IMG/VR virus record: IMGVR_UViG_3300031344_000004
Coordinates: 1 to 64,000 of that record
Strand: one strand, 5' to 3'
Source: a virus
Length of the DNA: 64,000 nt
Part shown: piece by piece, positions 1-63,438 of the stretch
Position numbering within the stretch: position 1 is the stretch's first letter
How the letters are laid out: every line of letters starts with the position of its first letter
Notes under the pieces: generated by a model
Database searches by the model: none
Told to the model about the DNA's origin: nothing
The model's input: only the letters and a program-made list of their open reading frames with translations
Translations under genes and position numbers: made by a program

Positions 1-70
1 GGAGGAGTAGCTCAGTGTAGAGCAGTGCCTGTACCGGCACAGGTCGTAGGTTAAACTCCTGCCTCCTCCA
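1..70 (+). tRNA. tRNA, probably Tyr(GTA), shortened anticodon loop
   Basis: Acceptor GGAGGAG pairs with CTCCTCC, the D-stem is GCTC/GAGC and the T-arm is GTAGG-TTAAACT-CCTGC. The anticodon arm is 16 nt, not 17: a perfect GTGCC/GGCAC stem encloses only six bases, TGTACC. GTA follows the only T that could be U33. CCA is not encoded. The gene begins at the first base of the window. Confidence 0.75.
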
Positions 71-76
71 CGATAC

Positions 77-4711: not shown

Positions 4712-5095
4712 GTGCAGAAGAGCCAGAAGAATTCTCGGTTCACAGCATCTAGTGGTGTACGTACGCGGCAGCAAGTCATTTCCCAACCCGAGGTCGTCAG
4801 CGCAGACGTCCTTGGTACCATGCTCGATGAAGATCTCATCGTGCGCCTTCGAGTGCTCGATGAAGCGTGTCGGACGGCGACGTCGTCGGGCATTGACACT
4901 CGACCGTGGGAAGAGGAGATTGCCTACGTCAAGCGTGAGCAGCACCTCCGGCGCGCGCGCCGTGAACAGCACTTGATCTACGCTCGCAAGATCGAGCAGG
5001 AGTTCAACGATTCCGAGCGCGGGTTGCCTGCGGGTGACTTTGACAACTCGGCATTCGTCTACGCGGCATCGGGCGGTCGTCCGAGGTGGAACTGA
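4712..5095 (+). CDS. Unknown 127-aa charged helical protein
   Basis: Start uncertain: the frame is open from GTG 4619, but the plausible start is GTG 4712 (MQKSQKNSRF), which lies beyond a possible -10 (TTACAT near 4622). The rest is Arg/Glu-rich and predicted helical (YVKREQHLRRARREQHL). Its TGA overlaps the ATG of the sigma factor, so the two are probably coupled. It could be a partner or regulator of that sigma factor; there is no direct evidence. Confidence 0.6.
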   Translation: MQKSQKNSRFTASSGVRTRQQVISQPEVVSADVLGTMLDEDLIVRLRVLDEACRTATSSGIDTRPWEEEIAYVKREQHLRRARREQHLIYARKIEQEFNDSERGLPAGDFDNSAFVYAASGGRPRWN

Positions 5096-5931
5096 TGACG
5101 ATCGAAAATCGTACTGCGCACAACGTCGTCGGCACTTACCTCGACAACCTACAACACTTTTCACAGCTCAAACACCCGGAGCTCGTGGAGCTGTTCAAGT
5201 CCTACGAAGTCGGTTGCACCCGCGATGAGACGGGTGAGGTCACCGATCGTACTCCCGAGGCCTTCAAGCTGCGCAACAAGATCTTGGAGTGCAACCTGCG
5301 ACTGGTGGTGTCGATCGCCAAGCAGTACCGAGGTCACAACCTACCGATCGAAGACCTCATTCAAGAAGGCAACATCGGCCTGATGAAGGCAGTCGATCGG
5401 TTCAAGTGGGAGAAGGGCTTTCGCTTCTCGACCTACGCCACGTGGTGGATCAAGCAGGCCATTGGTCAGCACGTCCTCAAGCGCAAGCGGATGATTCGCT
5501 TGCCCGCTCACGCGGCGACGGTGCAGCGCAAGATGTTGCAGGCGGCCGAAGAGTACCGTGAAAGCAACAATTGCGAGCCCACGACTGAGGAGCTGATGGG
5601 CCTGACCGGCGCCAGCGCGACGGTGATGAAGGCGACGATTCACTCGGGTCGTGGCACCATTTCGTTGCAGCAACCCCTGTCGTCGAGCGGCGAAGGCGAC
5701 ACTCTCGAGGACAAGGTCGAAGACGATCGCCCGGGCTCGAATCCATTCGAGAACGTGGCCGAGAAGCAATTGCTCGAGATCACCAAGATGGTGCTCGGTG
5801 AGCTGTCGGCCAAGGAGGCGGCGATCCTTCGCCTGCGCTTCGGCCTCGTCGAGGACGCGACTGATGACCAGTCGTATCCCATCACCGAGGAAGAGGCACG
5901 CCAAGTCATGGCGGGGAAAGGCCTGACATGA
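5095..5931 (+). CDS. RNA polymerase sigma-70 family factor lacking the region 4.2 recognition helix
   Basis: 278 aa. Region 2 is clear: NLRLVVSIAKQYRG (67-80), DLIQEGNIGLMKAVDRF (87-103), FSTYATWWIKQAI (111-123), then RLPAH and region 3 (135-200) with the SLQQPL linker. Region 4.1 follows (ELSAKEAAILRLRFGL, about 236-251). The protein stops at residue 278 (EEEARQVMAGKGLT), just where the second helix of the region 4.2 helix-turn-helix should come. It would direct host RNA polymerase to phage promoters, probably by -10 recognition. ATG 5095 (TGATG overlap, GAGG upstream) is preferred over GTG 5086. Confidence 0.9.
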   Translation: MTIENRTAHNVVGTYLDNLQHFSQLKHPELVELFKSYEVGCTRDETGEVTDRTPEAFKLRNKILECNLRLVVSIAKQYRGHNLPIEDLIQEGNIGLMKAVDRFKWEKGFRFSTYATWWIKQAIGQHVLKRKRMIRLPAHAATVQRKMLQAAEEYRESNNCEPTTEELMGLTGASATVMKATIHSGRGTISLQQPLSSSGEGDTLEDKVEDDRPGSNPFENVAEKQLLEITKMVLGELSAKEAAILRLRFGLVEDATDDQSYPITEEEARQVMAGKGLT

Positions 5932-7906: not shown

Positions 7907-9115
7907 ATGTCCACGACGTCCATGTCGATCGCGACCTTCAAGAAAGTCGCCGTCTGCCTGCCCCCGACCCGTTCGATCCTGCTCCGCGCCAATCACGGCG
8001 TGGGCAAGAGCAAGGTCATCAGGCAAGTGTCCACGCTGATCCGCCAGAAACTCCATGCCGACGGGGTCATTTACCTCGCCAAGAATCCGAACGCCTACCC
8101 GGTCATCGATCGGCGCGCCGGCCAGCTCACTGAGGGCGATGTCGTCGGCCTCCCGAGCACCGACGGCAACGTCACCCGCTTCAACCCACCTGACTGGGTC
8201 AAGAAAGCGTGCGTCGAGCCCTGCGTGTTGTTCCTCGATGAGCTTAACCGCGGCACCCAAGAGGTGATGCAGGCGATGTTTCAGATCGTCCTCGATCGGG
8301 AACTCAACGGTCACAAGCTGCACCCGTACACCCGGGTCTACAGCGCCATCAACGCCAGCGCGGCGTACTCTGTCAACGAGATCGACCCGGCGCTGCTCGA
8401 CCGCTTCTACGTCATCGACCTCGACCCCGATGCGACCGAATTCTGTGCCTGGGCGCGTAGCACCGACGCAGAGCAGGGCGGCAACCTCCACTACTTCATC
8501 CCCGACTTCATCACCTCGTGCGAACAGTGGCTATACCCTGCCAAACAGGCCGAGCCGAGCAGCAAGCAGCCGAGCCCGCGATCGTGGGAAATGGTCAACG
8601 AGTCGCTGGTCCACACTGACCTCATCGAGGACCCGCAGAACGACATGTTCTACCAGATCAGTCGAGGTTTTGTCGGCAATGAAGCGGCGATCGCCTTTCG
8701 CGACTACTGCATGAGCGTCGACAATCGCCTGACGGGCGAAGAGATCGTCAACGACCTGGACAAGAAAGCGATCGCAGCTAAGGTGGCGCGCCAGACGCAG
8801 GATCGGCAGAACGGCCTCATTGAGAAGGTCGCTGCCTATGTCACCGACAACTGTGCGACGCTGACTGACAAGCAAGGCAAGAACGTCCACACCTTCATGA
8901 AGTCGCTGCCCGATGAGCTCAAGATCTCGTTGTGGAGCAAGCTGACGAGCCACGGCATCGACAAGATCGAGCTGGCCAAGAGCATCCACAAGCACTGTGC
9001 AGAGACGGTGTTGTCGGTGTTCGGCGTGCCCATGGGTGAAGCCGGGATTGGCGTCACGCCTAACATACCCGGAGTCTTCAAGGAAAAGGCGAAGGACACC
9101 AAGGACACCAAGTAA
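7907..9115 (+). CDS. MoxR-type AAA+ ATPase
   Basis: 402 aa. Walker A ANHGVGKSK (28-36), Walker B VLFLDELNRG (107-116) and a sensor-type region around ALLDRFYVIDLD. MoxR-like AAA+ proteins act as chaperones or remodelling ATPases together with VWA-domain partners. A matching VWA protein is encoded at 24004-25449, 15 kb downstream on the same strand, under a promoter of the same class. AAGGAG lies 8 nt before ATG. The target of the pair is unknown. Confidence 0.85.
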   Translation: MSTTSMSIATFKKVAVCLPPTRSILLRANHGVGKSKVIRQVSTLIRQKLHADGVIYLAKNPNAYPVIDRRAGQLTEGDVVGLPSTDGNVTRFNPPDWVKKACVEPCVLFLDELNRGTQEVMQAMFQIVLDRELNGHKLHPYTRVYSAINASAAYSVNEIDPALLDRFYVIDLDPDATEFCAWARSTDAEQGGNLHYFIPDFITSCEQWLYPAKQAEPSSKQPSPRSWEMVNESLVHTDLIEDPQNDMFYQISRGFVGNEAAIAFRDYCMSVDNRLTGEEIVNDLDKKAIAAKVARQTQDRQNGLIEKVAAYVTDNCATLTDKQGKNVHTFMKSLPDELKISLWSKLTSHGIDKIELAKSIHKHCAETVLSVFGVPMGEAGIGVTPNIPGVFKEKAKDTKDTK

Positions 9116-9661: not shown

Positions 9662-9676
9662 ACTTTCTGTCCCCAC

Positions 9677-9697
9677 AATTACACCCGGGGTATAATT
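9677..9697 (+). promoter_or_regulatory. Dyad element, copy 2
   Basis: AATTACACCC joined to GGGGTATAATT, the most symmetric of the four copies. The right arm contains TATAAT. It lies 39 bp before the GTGTAA of the next promoter. Confidence 0.55.
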
Positions 9698-9702
9698 TGC
9701 CG

Positions 9703-9779
9703 TCAGTGTAACACGGCACGATGTGCCTACACACAGTGTAAGTTCCCGGACAATCGTGGTAGGATTAGATCATGTTGAA
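9703..9779 (+). repeat. Duplicated promoter-proximal segment, copy A
   Basis: The segment from CAGTGTAACACGG through the promoter and first three codons of the gene at 9772 is nearly identical to about 11247-11324. The visible difference is one extra T in the CCTTACACAC part of the second copy. Confidence 0.7.
9736..9771 (+). promoter_or_regulatory. Leaderless-type promoter
   Basis: GTGTAA at 9736, 18-nt spacer ending TGG, TAGGAT at 9760, TAGATC, ATG 9772. Confidence 0.8.
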
Positions 9780-10467
9780 GCAGAACGTTCAAGACACCTA
9801 CGTAGCCGATCGTGCCGCTATCGCGCAGCGCATCCTCACCAGCCCGCTTGCTGCCTACGTGGGTTACTCGGGCGACCTCTATCGCCTCGACAAGCTGCAT
9901 AACATCGCCCGCGACGGAAAGGCACACACCGGTTACTCATTCCTGTCGGTCGAGTTCAAGAAGGCAGGCACTGAGTGTTCGCTCGAAATTCGTGAAGAGG
10001 GATCCGGGTACTCTGGTGGTGTGACCACCGACGCCGAAGGCAATGAGTATCACGAGTATACGCTGTCCTGTGCCGTCAACTTTCCCTGCCACGGCAGCAC
10101 CGCCTGCGGTGCGGTGTTGGCCCGCCTCGCCTTCTATCAGCAGGTCGCATTGTTGGCCGCCGAGATCGAGGCCGAGTTTGTCGTCAATCGACGTGTCAAC
10201 TACAAGATGACGCGGACCGCAGCCGAGGTCGTCGCCGACAACGCGAAGGTGGAAGCCCAGCGCATCGAGCAAGCGTATGCCGGTGTGACACTAAAGTATG
10301 GCGCTACCGGACTCCGCGTCGGCAAAGTGGTCGGTCTCGACCCCGAAGACCTCGGCAACTTGCCAGAAGGCAAGCGCGACGTCGAGACCAGCCGAGGCAA
10401 GAAGTTCTCGATCTCGATCAATGCCGATAATGGCATCAAGGTTGGCCTCATCACCCGCACCGCCTAG
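9772..10467 (+). CDS. Unknown 231-aa protein
   Basis: No recognised domain. The middle has CAVNFPCHGSTACG and a helical stretch (QQVALLAAEIEAEFVV); the C-terminal part is strand-rich. Strong leaderless-type promoter preceded by a dyad element, so it is likely a regulated early gene. First of a three-gene run. Function unknown. Confidence 0.7.
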   Translation: MLKQNVQDTYVADRAAIAQRILTSPLAAYVGYSGDLYRLDKLHNIARDGKAHTGYSFLSVEFKKAGTECSLEIREEGSGYSGGVTTDAEGNEYHEYTLSCAVNFPCHGSTACGAVLARLAFYQQVALLAAEIEAEFVVNRRVNYKMTRTAAEVVADNAKVEAQRIEQAYAGVTLKYGATGLRVGKVVGLDPEDLGNLPEGKRDVETSRGKKFSISINADNGIKVGLITRTA

Positions 10468-11096: not shown

Positions 11097-11220
11097 CGAG
11101 GTGACTTGGCGGGTGAATTGTTCACCCTCGCTTCGGTCACGTGGGCACACGTGTGACGGGATGAAGGCAACTACCTTCGCTCGACCGCATTGTCCTAGGG
11201 CGGCCTGTGGGATTGGTCGG

Positions 11221-11241
11221 AATTACATCTCGGGTATAATT
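11221..11241 (+). promoter_or_regulatory. Dyad element, copy 3
   Basis: AATTACATCTCGGGTATAATT, 39 bp upstream of GTGTAA at 11280. The flank CCTAGGGCGG...GTGGG 5' of it is shared with copy 1. Confidence 0.5.
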
Positions 11242-11246
11242 TTGAG

Positions 11247-11324
11247 CAGTGTAACACGGCACGATGTGCCTTACACACAGTGTAAGTTCCCGGACAATCG
11301 TGGTAGGATTAGATCATGTTGAAG
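11247..11324 (+). repeat. Duplicated promoter-proximal segment, copy B
   Basis: Near-identical to 9703-9779, including dyad-to-promoter spacing and the start MLK of the gene. The downstream coding sequences are unrelated, so the regulatory cassette was copied without the gene. Confidence 0.7.
11280..11315 (+). promoter_or_regulatory. Leaderless-type promoter
   Basis: GTGTAA at 11280, 18-nt spacer ending TGG, TAGGAT at 11304, TAGATC, ATG 11316. Confidence 0.8.
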
Positions 11325-11537
11325 CTGAAGCCATTGTTTCTCGAGCAGATCTCACCGCTGGCACATCGCCAAGACGTGAGCATGACCGCAGTTATGAACT
11401 TCTTGATGACGGTGCAGTACAACGAGACCATCGACGCCGCGCTCGAGAACCTCAGGAGCGATGCCGCTTCGTACGGGTGGAACGCCGCGACGATCAAGGC
11501 GATCCGCGCCGGCATCCACCTCGCTGCGAAGGTCTAA
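11316..11537 (+). CDS. Unknown 73-aa helical protein
   Basis: Starts MLKLKPLFLEQISPLAHRQD; all-helical character, no membrane segment. Single gene between two promoters of the common class. Function unknown. Confidence 0.65.
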   Translation: MLKLKPLFLEQISPLAHRQDVSMTAVMNFLMTVQYNETIDAALENLRSDAASYGWNAATIKAIRAGIHLAAKV

Positions 11538-14128: not shown

Positions 14129-14278
14129 ATGGTGGACATCAGGCAACTGGCGGCTGAATGGCTGCAGGAACACGAGCACTACGAAAGCGAGCCCACGTAT
14201 GAACAGGACCTCGCCGACCTAGTGAAGTTGCTAGAGGATGTCCTTGCACGTGCCACGCTGGATGGGATTGGATCATGA
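14129..14278 (+). CDS. Unknown 49-aa acidic protein ahead of DNA ligase
   Basis: Short acidic helical protein (MVDIRQLAAEWLQEHEHYE). Supported by its promoter and by a 4-nt ATGA overlap with the ligase gene, so the two are co-transcribed and coupled. Function unknown. Confidence 0.65.
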   Translation: MVDIRQLAAEWLQEHEHYESEPTYEQDLADLVKLLEDVLARATLDGIGS

Positions 14279-16780: not shown

Positions 16781-17061
16781 GGCCGGCGCCTTCATATCCT
16801 CGTGTATTGCTGCGACCTGGCGACATGCTCGACGGCATGTTGGTGGTGTCGGTCGAGGCCAAACCTGTCATCTGGGACTGCATCACGGGCACCAGGTTGT
16901 GTGTTTGGTCGAATGGGTCGTCAGAGTTCAGGTGCTTTTTTCTCGCCGCGCGCAGACCGACCACCCAGGAACACTTCGATCTTCGTGCGATATTTCAACC
17001 GTCTATCTACGCTTATGACTTCTATTACGTCGACCACCGAGGTAGGTTGACAACGTGGTGA
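16771..17061 (+). CDS. KPGD-related small protein (subgroup B), 96 aa
   Basis: PRVLLRPGDMLDGMLVVSVE then CVWSNGSSEFRCFFL. The last residues (VDHRGRLTTW) resemble the D-x-G-x-(I/L)-T/R-W end of other members. 10-nt overlap with the previous gene. Confidence 0.65.
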   Translation: MAMRPAPSYPRVLLRPGDMLDGMLVVSVEAKPVIWDCITGTRLCVWSNGSSEFRCFFLAARRPTTQEHFDLRAIFQPSIYAYDFYYVDHRGRLTTW

Positions 17062-18337: not shown

Positions 18338-18634
18338 ATGCGTAACGGGTTCAGGTGGCAGTACTGGATGTTGGCACGTCGGGCCCCTACAAGCGTCATC
18401 GCCGGCACGCTCGCCTGTGCCATCGCAGCAGACGGCATCAACAACGTTGCGAGATCTCGCTCCCCCAGCGGAATGCTGTTCAAGGCGTTCGGGTGCGTCG
18501 TGTGTGCGTTGATCGCTATCTTCTTCTTCAACCACGATTTCCCGCTGATCGGCCTGCTGTTCGCGTGGCCCGCGGTGGGCTGCACGTACAAGGTGGTGAG
18601 GTACTGGAATTCGATTGACGCGAGGCCATTGTAA
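18338..18634 (+). CDS. Membrane protein, 98 aa
   Basis: Three hydrophobic stretches, around residues 18-32, 46-66 (FKAFGCVVCALIAIFFF) and 70-88 (PLIGLLFAWPAVGCTYK). Own promoter. Function unknown. Confidence 0.65.
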   Translation: MRNGFRWQYWMLARRAPTSVIAGTLACAIAADGINNVARSRSPSGMLFKAFGCVVCALIAIFFFNHDFPLIGLLFAWPAVGCTYKVVRYWNSIDARPL

Positions 18635-18683
18635 AGTTGTACCAGCGAGGCTTATTTTGGGGTCAAAGGATCGTCACCCCACC

Positions 18684-19649
18684 ATGCGTTTTCACCACGG
18701 CCTCATTGCCTTCACGTCGTCATTCATCACGACGTTCGCCTGCTCACGCGTTCCTGCGCCCACACACACGAGAGAACCCGTCAGCATCGAGCGCGATGTG
18801 AAGGCCAGCGATCCTGCGCCTGCATGCTCGGACGCAACGTGCACGACGCCAGTCGAGCAGATCCCGTTGGTGCCTGGGCGGTGCCCGGCCGACATGGTCG
18901 AGGTTGACGGTGAGTACTGCCCGAACGAACGCATCGTGTGCCTGTACAACACCGACAGCAATGGCAAACGCTTGCCGGGTAAAGGTTCGCTGGACAAGGC
19001 TTGCGGGGAGTACCAGAACCCGTCGGTTTGCCTCTCCAAGACGCAGCACATGGACTTCTGCATGGATCGCTATGAGTGGCCGAACAAGGAAGGACAAGTC
19101 CCGCAGGATTGGATGACCTACTTCGATGCCAAGAAGGCAACCGCTGCCGTCGGCAAGCGCCTGTGTACTGCGAAGGAGTGGACGCTGGCCGCCGAGGGCA
19201 AGAACATGCACCCGCTGCCTTACGGAGATGGCTATCACCGTGACAAGACCATCTGCAACTTCGATCGCCACTACACCGACATCTACGGTCTCCCGGCGTA
19301 TCAGGCCCTGCACCTGAAGGGCATCGATGTCTTTCATGCCAAGCGTCCCAACGATCCCATGAGCAAGGCCATTCGGCTGTTCTTGGTGCTGTCGGGTTCT
19401 GAACCGGGATGTCACTCCGACTTCGGGGTCTTCGACCTTTCGGGTAACGTCGATGAATTTGTGGTCAACGAAGGTGGTTCAACCTGCGTCCGCAAGTCGA
19501 CGGGGAACTGCATCTCGGGTCTCATGGGCGGCCATCAGTGGCACGTGAGGAACGCCAGTCGACCAATGACGACTGCCCATGGCGAGACGTTCGGATGGTA
19601 CGAAACCAGCACACGAGGATGTAAAGACGTCGCCGTTGTGAAAGAGTGA
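18684..19649 (+). CDS. Lipoprotein with formylglycine-generating-enzyme (SUMF1)-like domain
   Basis: 321 aa. ATG 18684 gives a signal peptide ending in a lipobox-like TTFAC (about residue 20); upstream in-frame codons would bury it. The mature part has the SUMF1/FGE-sulfatase fold signatures: FCMDRYEWPNKEG, a KRLCTAKEWTLAAEGK segment (the R-L-P-T-E-A-E-W-E equivalent), FDLSGNVDEFV and HGETFGWYETSTRGC near the end. Such lipoproteins are frequent in myxobacteria. In a phage it could modify the cell surface or be host-derived cargo. Enzymatic activity is uncertain. Confidence 0.8.
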   Translation: MRFHHGLIAFTSSFITTFACSRVPAPTHTREPVSIERDVKASDPAPACSDATCTTPVEQIPLVPGRCPADMVEVDGEYCPNERIVCLYNTDSNGKRLPGKGSLDKACGEYQNPSVCLSKTQHMDFCMDRYEWPNKEGQVPQDWMTYFDAKKATAAVGKRLCTAKEWTLAAEGKNMHPLPYGDGYHRDKTICNFDRHYTDIYGLPAYQALHLKGIDVFHAKRPNDPMSKAIRLFLVLSGSEPGCHSDFGVFDLSGNVDEFVVNEGGSTCVRKSTGNCISGLMGGHQWHVRNASRPMTTAHGETFGWYETSTRGCKDVAVVKE

Positions 19650-22225: not shown

Positions 22226-22299
22226 GCGTCCTGGGCCATTCGGTGGGCCGTCGGGCGGTACCTAGGCATGCCCGGGAGGACGACAGGCAAGTGGGGGAC

Positions 22300-22320
22300 A
22301 ATTACACTCCGGGTATAATT
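22300..22320 (+). promoter_or_regulatory. Dyad element, copy 4
   Basis: AATTACACTCCGGGTATAATT, only 9 bp upstream of the GTGCAA of the ncRNA promoter. Confidence 0.55.
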
Positions 22321-22329
22321 GCGAGGACA

Positions 22330-22365
22330 GTGCAAGTCGGCCCTCGACCGTGGTAAGATTGATTC
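22330..22365 (+). promoter_or_regulatory. Promoter without an ORF
   Basis: GTGCAA at 22330, 18-nt spacer ending TGG, TAAGAT at 22354, six bases, then A 22366 where other copies have ATG. No start codon or ORF follows. Confidence 0.65.
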
Positions 22366-22545
22366 AAGTGGTGGCAAAACGCCAGCGTTGCCAGGCGGTT
22401 CCCCGTGGGGTTCGATAATACCCCGCAGGCACGAGAGTAGGGAACCCACCACCTGCCAACGCTTGGTAAGCGGCGAAGCCGTAGTTTGCCGGGGGACGCC
22501 CTGGACACACTGAAGGGGAGTTCGCAACTCCCGCCCGGCACTAAA
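22366..22545 (+). ncRNA. Candidate structured noncoding RNA, about 180 nt
   Basis: Begins at the predicted start of an ORF-less promoter. Visible helices: GGTTCCC (22397-22403) with GGGAACC (22440-22446), flanked by GCGTTGCCAGG facing CCTGCCAACGC; GGCGAAGCC hairpin inside GGTAA...TTTGCC (22464-22490); GCCGGG...CCCGGC closing a domain; and GGGAGTT-CGC-AACTCCC (22516-22532) near the 3' end. The next promoter starts at 22546. No similarity to tmRNA or a known riboswitch was recognised. Confidence 0.55.
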
Positions 22546-22581
22546 GTGCAAGTTCAACCTCGATCCTGGTAGGATTAGATC
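22546..22581 (+). promoter_or_regulatory. Leaderless-type promoter
   Basis: GTGCAA at 22546, 18-nt spacer ending TGG, TAGGAT at 22570, TAGATC, ATG 22582. Confidence 0.78.
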
Positions 22582-23232
22582 ATGCCGATCAAGCAAGTCT
22601 ACCAAGAGCGCGATGCCAGTGGCGTTGAGCACCCCCGTGAAGAGCTAACCTTCGAGGGTCGGGTCGTCAAGGTACGCACCTACACCGCCAGTCGCAACCA
22701 CAGCGACACCCTTGACTACAGCGATTTTCGCAGCACGACGGTCACTGAGGCGCTGGTCTGGGTGGGCCGTGAAGTAGAAGCACTCGATTGGGTTCGTGAC
22801 GTCAAACACACGCAGCCCGTCGAGCCCAAAGATCGCTTCAAGTGGGTCGACTGCACCAACCTCTTCGTCTGGCGCGGGTCACCTGCAAGGACGCCCAAAG
22901 TCGACGTCCTTGCCTTGGCGATCCCGGAGCTGTTCGAGGACCTCGAGGCGTGGTTGAAGATTCAGGCCAATGAAGCGCAGGCGAAGGAGGCGGCAATTGA
23001 GGCCCGACGCGTGGCCCTCGATAAGGCCCGTGCCGACGACGAGCGGAACCGCCCCGTCATCGGCAAGCAGATGGTGGTTGCCAAAGGCCGCAAGGTCAAA
23101 GTCGGCACCGTGGGCACCGTCGCCTTCGTGTCTGACAGTGGACGGGTGTTGTTGAAGGATGACGACAAGTGGCAGGACCGCAAGTCGGACGGCACCTGGG
23201 TCGCGGCGGGAAACCTCAAGGCACGGGCGTGA
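22582..23232 (+). CDS. Unknown 216-aa protein with C-terminal KOW-like motif
   Basis: N-terminal strand-rich part (EELTFEGRVVKVRTYTAS), a central charged helix (NEAQAKEAAIEARRVALDKA, about 130-149), and a C-terminal KOW-like element (VAKGRKVKVGTVGTVAFVSD). A KOW fold usually contacts RNA or RNA polymerase, but the role here is unknown. Confidence 0.65.
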   Translation: MPIKQVYQERDASGVEHPREELTFEGRVVKVRTYTASRNHSDTLDYSDFRSTTVTEALVWVGREVEALDWVRDVKHTQPVEPKDRFKWVDCTNLFVWRGSPARTPKVDVLALAIPELFEDLEAWLKIQANEAQAKEAAIEARRVALDKARADDERNRPVIGKQMVVAKGRKVKVGTVGTVAFVSDSGRVLLKDDDKWQDRKSDGTWVAAGNLKARA

Positions 23233-24003: not shown

Positions 24004-25449
24004 ATGACGGACAAATCTAAGGACGACGGCAAGACGGTGATGGCGGAGCAACACGTCGGTGGGGGTGGCCAATGGAGAGAGTGTGCGACGGACTACAACC
24101 TGTCGCGTCACATACTGCCGTTCCTCCAAGATTGTGCGTTCTATGCTAGCATCAGTCGCCACGTCAAGAAGCGCTTCACGCTCGACATTCCGACGGCCGC
24201 CGTCACCTTCGATCCCAAGGAAGACGAGATCATCATGTACGTCAACCCCGTCTTCATGGGCGGTGGCGAGTACACCGATCCGCACGGTAACGATGGCAAG
24301 GGTGAGCTCATCAAGCGTGAGAGCCTGACCAACCTGGAGACACGCGGAATACTGGTCCACGAGATGGATCACATCATCTTCGGTCACCTGTCGGCACGCC
24401 GGCGCCACCCGGATGACAAGCACAACATCGCCACCGACTGTGCCATCAACTCACTGATCGTCACCCACGCCGGCGCGCCGAAGAACGCCGAGCCGGGCCA
24501 GGTGCTGCGGGCGTTGCCCAAGGAAGGCCTAGTGCCGGGCCAGCGACCCTACATCGATCCGATCAAATTCGCCAAGTTGAAGCCCGCGCAGCAGGAAGCC
24601 ACGATGTGGCTGTGTGACCTGATCGAGAAGTTCCCGCCGCTGATGGCGTCGGAGTGGTACTTTCACAAGCTGCTCGAGGAGTGCAAGAAGCGACCGAATG
24701 GTGGCGAAGGCGACGAGTACATGATCGGCACCATGGACAGCCACGACGGTTGGGACGGCGTCCCGGAAGACATGCGGGAGTACGTCGAGAGCAAGGTCAA
24801 GGGCATCGTTGAAAAGGCAGTGCGCCACGCCGACGGGCAGGCCGACGGTTGGGGCAACATTCCGGCCGAGCTGCAGGCCGAGATCAGGCGGTCGATCAGC
24901 AAGATCATCGACTGGCGCGCAGTCCTCCGCCAGTTCATCGGCAGCATCACCCGCGGCGAGCGGTCGACGTCGATCAAGCGCATCAACCGGCGCTATCCCT
25001 ACATCCACCCGGGCGTCAAACGCGGTTACACCGCCAAGCTGTTCGTCGCTCTCGACGAGTCGGGCTCGGTCAGCGATGAGATGCTGGAGATGTTCTTCGC
25101 CGAGCTCGACGGCCTGACCAAGAAGACCAGCATCACCCTGTGTCACTTCGACTGCGACGCGGGTCCCAAGGACCTGTACGAGTGGAAGAAGGGCACGCGG
25201 CCCAAGTTGAAGCGGGTCAAGGGCGGTGGCACCAACTTCGACGCACCGACCAACATTGTCAATGACCCGAAGAATAGGGGGCGTTGGGACGGCATGATCA
25301 TCTGCACCGATGGGCAAGCACCCGCGCCGGGCCCGAGCCGCATCAAGCGCGCCTGGGTTTTGGGCCAAGGTTGCAAGCTCAACTTTTCTACCAGTGAGTT
25401 GGTCATCAACTTGACCAAGGAAGAACAGATGAAGGGGGCGTGGAGGTGA
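24004..25449 (+). CDS. VWA-like domain / zinc-metallopeptidase-like protein (DUF2201 type)
   Basis: 481 aa. An HExxH-type motif VHEMDHIIFGH (118-128) occurs in the N-terminal half, as in the metallopeptidase-like domain paired with VWA-like domains. The C-terminal half has a MIDAS motif ALDESGSVSDE (about residue 350), then GGGTNFDAP and the CTDGQAP strand. Proteins of this type work with MoxR AAA+ ATPases; one is encoded at 7907-9115. Their joint role, whether protein remodelling or anti-host activity, is unknown. Confidence 0.82.
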   Translation: MTDKSKDDGKTVMAEQHVGGGGQWRECATDYNLSRHILPFLQDCAFYASISRHVKKRFTLDIPTAAVTFDPKEDEIIMYVNPVFMGGGEYTDPHGNDGKGELIKRESLTNLETRGILVHEMDHIIFGHLSARRRHPDDKHNIATDCAINSLIVTHAGAPKNAEPGQVLRALPKEGLVPGQRPYIDPIKFAKLKPAQQEATMWLCDLIEKFPPLMASEWYFHKLLEECKKRPNGGEGDEYMIGTMDSHDGWDGVPEDMREYVESKVKGIVEKAVRHADGQADGWGNIPAELQAEIRRSISKIIDWRAVLRQFIGSITRGERSTSIKRINRRYPYIHPGVKRGYTAKLFVALDESGSVSDEMLEMFFAELDGLTKKTSITLCHFDCDAGPKDLYEWKKGTRPKLKRVKGGGTNFDAPTNIVNDPKNRGRWDGMIICTDGQAPAPGPSRIKRAWVLGQGCKLNFSTSELVINLTKEEQMKGAWR

Positions 25450-28083: not shown

Positions 28084-28164
28084 GACCTCGTGGTGTAATG
28101 GCAGCCACGGCTCGCTTAAAACGAGCTGCTTTCGGGCGTGAGGGTTCGACTCCCTCCGAGGTTA
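28084..28164 (+). tRNA. tRNA-Leu(TAA)
   Basis: Class II. Acceptor GACCTCG/CGAGGTT, anticodon arm GCTCG-CTTAAAA-CGAGC, long variable arm, T-arm GAGGG-TTCGACT-CCCTC. Confidence 0.9.
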
Positions 28165-28170
28165 CGCGTA

Positions 28171-28247
28171 GTAACTGGTGTGCTAGTGTATTGGTGAGCA
28201 CACCCGTCTTGTAAGCGGGAAGATTCCGTTCGATTCGGAAGCGAAAG
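28171..28247 (+). tRNA. tRNA-Thr(TGT)-like gene with unpaired acceptor
   Basis: Anticodon arm CCCGT-CTTGTAA-GCGGG, D-stem GTGC/GCAC (long loop) and T-arm TTCCG-TTCGATT-CGGAA are good, but the seven bases on each side do not pair. An intact Thr(TGT) follows at 28262. Probably a defective copy. Confidence 0.5.
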
Positions 28248-28261
28248 TGAAACGCAAATTC

Positions 28262-63365: not shown

Positions 63366-63366
63366 G

Positions 63367-63438
63367 CGCTCCCGGAGGGATTCGGACCCTCGCACATCCG
63401 GTTGAAATCGGACTGCTCTGCCACTGAGCTACGGGAGC
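63367..63438 (-). tRNA. tRNA with eight-base anticodon loop
   Basis: Only minus-strand tRNA. Acceptor GCTCCCG/CGGGAGC, D-stem GCTC/GAGC, T-arm GAGGG-TCCGAAT-CCCTC. The anticodon stem GTCCG/CGGAT (one G-T pair) encloses ATTTCAAC, eight bases, with a four-base variable loop. In-loop triplets include TTC (Glu) and TCA; a four-base anticodon is possible. Confidence 0.75.

What the first reader, a model, noticed from the sequence alone, without database searches (positions are those of the whole stretch)
22330..22545. Regulon promoter driving an ORF-less structured RNA
A full copy of the promoter (GTGCAA, 18 nt, TAAGAT) and a dyad element precede about 180 nt with no start codon at the usual position and no ORF, but with several long-range helices and a final 7-bp GGGAGTT/AACTCCC hairpin. 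It ends exactly where the next promoter begins. This is the best candidate here for a previously undescribed phage small RNA.
Basis: partly seen in the sequence, partly recalled or inferred. Interest (0 to 1): 0.72.

Follow-up and report, generated by a model that had tools for sequence, protein, structure and literature searches.

The report
Conserved structured RNA of giant phages
A giant, tRNA-rich phage makes, from one of its own promoters, a folded RNA of about 180 bases that codes for no protein; two distant relatives keep the same 3' fold while changing its letters, so it is very probably a real RNA gene of an undescribed family.

Summary
At 22330-22359 lies a full copy of a phage promoter (GTGCAA-18-TAAGAT) that recurs through a genome of probably more than 350 kb. 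Of 36 such promoters in this phage, 27 put an ATG at the start site, 8 have a short leader and then a gene, and only this one opens onto about 180 nt without a credible ORF. Comparison settles that it is RNA. The last 86 nt (22457-22542) recur in two divergent jumbo phages, in the same genome region, each behind a copy of the promoter: 80% identity in one (E 5e-13), covariance scores 93-105 bits. Eight of 20 base pairs changed on both sides and stayed paired (0 of 500 shuffles). Neighbouring genes differ in the three phages, which favours a trans-acting RNA over an mRNA leader. The 5' part is exchangeable: a small hairpin here, a 240-nt domain in the second phage, a tRNA with a 6-nt anticodon loop in the third. 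No Rfam family matches. Position, exchangeable 5' part and occasional embedded tRNA recall the phage tRNA-island RNAs GOLLD and ROOL, but it is much smaller and not a member of either. Function is inferred only; no transcript data were available.

The parts
22232..22250 (+). Upstream element TGGGCC-N-GTGGGCCG, about 100 nt before the promoter
   Evidence: Found before the RNA in all three phages (window 22232, L132 8088, L137 16673) and before one paralogous promoter of the same phage (L106 19018, minus strand) (paralog)
22299..22321 (.). Dyad CAATTACAC-N5-GTATAATTG, possible operator or activator site
   Evidence: the same element before other promoters of the phage (contexts)
22330..22359 (+). 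Phage promoter GTGCAA-18-TAAGAT; start site inferred at about 22366
22366..22542 (+). Structured noncoding RNA (whole unit)
   Evidence: No coding frame; z = -3.3; 3' part conserved with covariation
22384..22463 (+). 5' arm: 16-nt inverted repeat (22384-22399 with 22448-22463) enclosing a small core with GUUCCC/GGGAAC and GUGGGG/CCCCGC stems; not conserved in sequence
   Evidence: 88% complementary; fold
22457..22542 (+). Conserved 3' module; possible closing stem GCUUGGU (22461-22467) with GCCCGGC (22533-22539)
   Evidence: CM R1 102 bits; homologs in L132 and L137; RNAalifold
22472..22480 (+). Hairpin b: GGC-GAA-GCC here; CUC-GGA-GAG and CCC-GAA-GGG in relatives
   Evidence: two of three pairs changed on both sides
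22489..22504 (+). Hairpin c: CCGGGG-GACG-CCCUGG, loop GACG invariant
   Evidence: two of six pairs changed on both sides
22516..22532 (+). Hairpin d: GGGAGUU-CGC-AACUCCC, loop CGC invariant
   Evidence: four of seven pairs changed on both sides
22546..22575 (+). Next copy of the promoter, driving the leaderless gene 22582-23232
22582..23232 (+). Downstream gene, 216 aa, no PHROGs or Pfam match; no homolog found near the RNA in the two relatives
5086..5931 (+). Phage RNA polymerase sigma factor gene, candidate reader of the promoter
   Evidence: PHROGs 351 E 3.5e-46, Pfam Sigma70_r2 E 8.3e-23

Best explanation
22366-22542 is a noncoding RNA gene of a jumbo phage. Shown by sequence: a phage promoter stands in front of it, it holds no credible coding frame, and its 3' 86 nt are conserved as a structure in two other phages. 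Inferred: the phage's own sigma factor, with host polymerase, transcribes it with the early or middle gene set. The 3' module folds as a compact domain of three conserved hairpins (GRA, GACG and CGC loops) and is the functional part; the 5' arm is an exchangeable accessory. It acts in trans, most likely by binding a protein or the translation machinery during infection, as proposed for the phage tRNA-island RNAs GOLLD and ROOL. In the phage with an embedded tRNA, cuts at the tRNA ends would free the 3' module as its own small RNA. The RNA-gene claim is about 0.9 likely, trans action about 0.7, the translation link about 0.35.
For: Promoter present with AAG where 27 of 36 sister promoters have ATG. 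Fold z = -3.3. Homologs: L132 8540-8617, 79.7% identity, E 5e-13; L137/G013 16961-17043, 92.9 bits with R1. Both lie upstream of the same DUF2201/VWA gene and behind a promoter copy: GTGTAACCC...GTGGTAGAGT in G013, GTGTAA...TATACT in L132. Covariation: 96.7% of cells paired, 8 pairs with two-sided change, 0 of 500 shuffles; shifted controls have at most 1. RNAalifold finds hairpins b, c and d on its own. The module is about 80% identical in L132 where the phages' DNA ligases share only 64% of residues. Flanking genes differ among the three phages. The phages are tRNA-rich. Rfam has no match.
Against: Only three distinct sequences. R1 was built from them, so its hits to them are not independent; the discovering evidence is the BLAST match and reading the syntenic interval. 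No homolog in about 30 other related records, some of which cover the syntenic interval, so it is not essential to the group. No transcript data. No intrinsic terminator, so the 3' end is inferred. Nothing in the data names a partner.
Confidence: 0.72

Rival explanations
1. Cis-acting leader: transcription from 22330 runs through into gene 22582 (216 aa) and the structure controls its expression, like a riboswitch or ribosomal-protein leader.
For: No terminator after the RNA; gene 22582 follows at once. In the relative G012 a different structured RNA stands as a leader between a promoter copy and a gene with its own ribosome-binding site.
Against: Gene 22582 has its own promoter at 22546 with a leaderless ATG. 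The downstream gene differs in all three phages: a 216-aa gene here, a short Arg-rich gene in G013, tRNA-Glu and then a Cys/His-rich gene in L132.
Confidence: 0.14
2. Degenerate tRNA or tRNA-processing by-product: the 3' end (hairpin d plus CCCGGCAC) is a T-arm and acceptor strand.
For: The 3' end looks like the phage's own tRNA ends. A tRNA is embedded in the G013 copy and a tRNA-Glu follows the L132 copy.
Against: ARAGORN and Rfam find no tRNA here. In G013 the would-be T-loop position changed U-A to A-U as a base pair, so it is a stem with a CGC loop. The would-be 5' acceptor GCCGGG is really one arm of hairpin c.
Confidence: 0.04
3. A short protein gene (GTG or TTG start) or a decayed gene that lost its ATG.
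For: Promoter of a gene regulon; a 64-aa TTG frame at 22319-22513 and GTG at 22368.
Against: No frame scores as coding. Every + frame of the interval has stops in all three phages. Changes between phages fit helices rather than codons.
Confidence: 0.03
4. Conserved DNA element (protein-binding or recombination site) rather than RNA.
For: Dyad and upstream element nearby are DNA-type elements.
Against: G-U pairs occur in the conserved helices (columns 8-14 and 36-47), 3-4 nt loops are invariant, and a start site fixes the 5' end; these are expected of RNA, not of a DNA site.
Confidence: 0.05

Closest known systems
GOLLD RNA
   Same: Encoded by phages and prophages near tRNA islands; conserved 3' region with less conserved 5' region; tRNAs sometimes lie in its linker (PMC12286853). 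Here: conserved 3' module, exchangeable 5' part, embedded tRNA in G013.
   Different: Many GOLLD RNAs exceed 800 nt; this is 180-390 nt. No covariance match even at E up to 10 on the window RNA, L132 or G013 copies.
ROOL RNA
   Same: Phage and prophage RNA of unknown function near tRNA islands (PMC12286853).
   Different: Different size and structure; no Rfam match.
Phage K lnc001 and lnc002 and small ncRNAs
   Same: Intergenic phage noncoding RNAs of a lytic tRNA-carrying phage, one from its own early promoter; the authors compare the long ones with GOLLD and ROOL (PMC9241854).
   Different: lnc001 and lnc002 span about 0.6-1.2 kb in a staphylococcal phage; no sequence comparison was made here beyond the negative blastn against annotated phages.
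T4 tRNA-cluster species 1 and 2 RNAs (from memory)
   Same: Small stable phage RNAs of unknown function near phage tRNAs.
   Different: No dedicated sequence test done; cited as an analogy only.

Membership tests
GOLLD | Match to the Rfam covariance model | tested here: not met
   No match at gathering score nor at E up to 10
GOLLD | Length of several hundred nt, many over 800 | tested here: not met
   180 nt here, about 250 in G013, about 390 in L132
GOLLD | Conserved 3' region with variable 5' region, near tRNA islands | tested here: met
   resemblance of kind only
ROOL | Match to the Rfam covariance model | tested here: not met
tRNA or tmRNA | Cloverleaf, or tmRNA with tag frame | tested here: not met
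   ARAGORN and Rfam negative at 22366-22545
5S rRNA | 5S covariance match | tested here: not met
   Only a 14-nt identity (CGAGAGTAGGGAAC); the same 14-mer occurs in 48 stretches of viral DNA, where its surroundings align to neither the RNA nor 5S beyond chance, and no 5S match reached E 10
Any Rfam 15 family | Match above gathering score | tested here: not met
   (window); searches show only tRNAs around the homologs, the one inside the G013 copy at 44.4 bits
Phage small noncoding RNA (general kind) | Own promoter and no coding frame | tested here: met
Phage small noncoding RNA (general kind) | Detected transcript | not testable with these tools
   No expression data available

The most novel reading that the evidence does not exclude
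A new modular phage RNA family: a compact conserved 3' domain to which unrelated 5' domains are joined (a hairpin, a 240-nt domain, a tRNA with a 6-nt anticodon loop). The 240-nt domain also occurs elsewhere as a leader element, so jumbo phages would shuffle RNA domains much as they shuffle protein domains, with the 3' domain as a docking module for a common partner such as the ribosome or an RNA-binding protein.
Probability: 0.25. Interest if true: 0.82.

Novelty: new variant of a known kind. Interest (0 to 1): 0.62.

Why it matters
Structured RNAs of jumbo phages are little described. This one has a defined promoter, clear ends and covariation support in uncultured phages, and no Rfam model. 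It gives a small, testable counterpart to the large tRNA-island RNAs GOLLD and ROOL, whose function is unknown, and shows the same design (fixed 3' part, exchangeable 5' part, tRNA carried along) in 180-390 nt.

Tried and rejected
5S rRNA likeness (14-nt match) rejected as chance. tRNA-like 3' end rejected by covariation. blastn against annotated phages: nothing. Pattern scans of viral contigs for the 3' module: only the same three phages; the other hits (L201, L202, L204, L205, L207, L241, L242) lack the flanking hairpins and are chance. Scan of bacterial and archaeal genomes: six chance hits, none scored by R1. L026, sharing 18 nt, is an unrelated phage intergenic hairpin. A weak syntenic CM hit in L143 lies in a coding region. 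A first, misnumbered structure string gave meaningless counts and was replaced. The region upstream of the promoter (22226-22329) does not fold better than shuffles. Literature searches for a jumbo-phage RNA of this kind found nothing closer than phage K and GOLLD/ROOL; two searches for T4-type stable RNAs found no papers.

Full report
Setting. The window is 64 kb of a 99.8-kb IMG/VR phage record. Two further contigs match it at 99.99-100% over several kb: one of 215,857 bases covering the left part of the window and one of 141,862 bases covering 17762 onwards. If they are one phage, the genome is at least about 350 kb (inference). The window holds 36 ARAGORN tRNA genes, a sigma factor gene at 5086, an ATP-dependent DNA ligase at 14275 and a DUF2201/VWA gene at 24004.

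The promoter. A matrix built from sites seen in the window finds 19 strong sites in it, all on the + strand; shuffles give 0-1 above a much lower score. Across the two larger contigs 36 distinct sites pass; 27 have ATG 5-7 nt after the -10 box, so these mRNAs are probably leaderless; eight have a short leader and then a gene; the only site without a following ORF is 22330. The same promoter, often with the same GATCATG, is found in related phages, so the regulon is shared by the group.

The interval. From the inferred start 22366 to 22545 no frame resembles the phage's codon usage, and folding is stronger than in all 200 shuffles (z = -3.3). There is no intrinsic terminator. Rfam has no match, also at permissive thresholds.

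Homologs. Relatives were reached through the DNA ligase and the promoter. blastn of the RNA against them gave one hit: L132 (IMGVR 3300012987_000145) 8540-8617, 79.7% identity, E 5e-13. Reading the syntenic interval of a second relative, G013 (IMGVR 3300035696_000017), revealed the same motif with altered stems; a profile from the three gives 86-91 bits to each, and covariance model R1 gives 102, 105 and 93 bits, which is expected since it was built from them. No other record of about 50 searched, and no bacterial genome reached by the pattern, has it.

Structure and covariation. In the 3' module, hairpin b is GGC-GAA-GCC, CUC-GGA-GAG or CCC-GAA-GGG; hairpin c keeps its GACG loop while the stem changes; hairpin d keeps its CGC loop while the stem changes from GGGAGUU/AACUCCC to GUGGAU/AUCCAC. 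Counted: 96.7% of cells paired, 8 of 20 pairs with changes on both sides, 0 of 500 shuffles reaching any of the five measures, and shifted structures at most 1. RNAalifold finds b, c and d without guidance and adds a closing stem GCUUGGU/GCCCGGC of mostly invariant letters; the alternative is a small hairpin GCUU-GGU-AAGC. Invariant letters cannot decide between them.

The 5' part. In the window it is a 16-nt inverted repeat with a small core. In G013 a tRNA-like gene (44.4 bits, six-base anticodon loop) sits between the start and the 3' module. In L132 there is a domain of about 240 nt closed by a 16-bp stem; that domain is homologous to a promoter-driven, ORF-less leader RNA in a third relative, G012, with 11 of 21 counted pairs changed on both sides and all pairs kept. 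So the 3' module is fixed and the 5' part is exchangeable. At the proposed start sites the three RNAs begin AAGUGGUGG, AUCCGGUGG and AAGUGAUGG, and nucleotides 2-5 could pair with the 3' end in each; this was read by eye and in L132 needs a shift of four bases, so it is only a suggestion.

Mechanism. The RNA is fixed by its promoter and by conserved structure, while its neighbours on both sides change between phages. That favours a trans-acting RNA over a leader of gene 22582, which has its own promoter. The surroundings (tRNA-rich phages, a tRNA inside or beside two of three copies) point towards translation or tRNA-like processing, but no partner is shown. GOLLD is the best analogue: conserved 3' region, less conserved 5' region, near tRNA islands, tRNAs sometimes in its linker, ribosome pull-down reported (PMC12286853). 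Membership fails on the covariance match and on size.

Verdict. Confirmed observation, supported interpretation; a small RNA family not in Rfam, known here from three uncultured phages, function inferred.

Noticed in passing
L088 16827-17058 (minus strand; contig IMGVR_UViG_3300032053_008651): A second promoter-driven ORF-less structured RNA (z = -4.1) in a related phage, placed as a leader of the ortholog of the window gene after 2868; its core is homologous to the 5' domain of the L132 RNA, with a 16-bp stem kept through 9 two-sided changes.
   Followed up: partly
window promoters at 1690, 1977, 2227, 2410, 9736, 11280, 11546, 13090, 13871, 14093, 22546, 23968 and others: Phage-wide promoter with ATG at a fixed 6 nt after the -10 box: probably a large leaderless regulon, likely read by the phage sigma factor at 5086-5931.
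   Followed up: partly
window 22299-22321, 9676-9698, 11220-11242: Dyad AATTACAC-N5-GTATAATT just upstream of some regulon promoters; more copies in the 215-kb contig. Possible operator.
   Followed up: partly
window 22230-22360 and 215-kb contig G008:155390-155507 (minus): The upstream element, dyad and promoter are duplicated in the same phage at 75% identity; the other copy drives a leaderless gene, without the RNA.
   Followed up: partly
window 1-71, 77-149, 28160-28249, 63366-63438; L092 9786-9857 (minus): tRNA-like genes whose anticodon loop gives two- or four-base anticodons in ARAGORN; may be decoys, suppressors or decaying tRNAs.
   Followed up: no
window 9677-9785 and 11221-11329: 110-bp direct duplication (92%) containing dyad and promoter.
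   Followed up: no
window 18615-19649: Protein with an FGE-sulfatase (C-type lectin-like) domain, conserved in relatives; no reverse transcriptase search was made, so a diversity-generating retroelement was not tested.
   Followed up: no
window 22432-22445: 14-nt identity to the 3' strand of bacterial 5S rRNA (CGAGAGTAGGGAAC); judged chance.
   Followed up: yes
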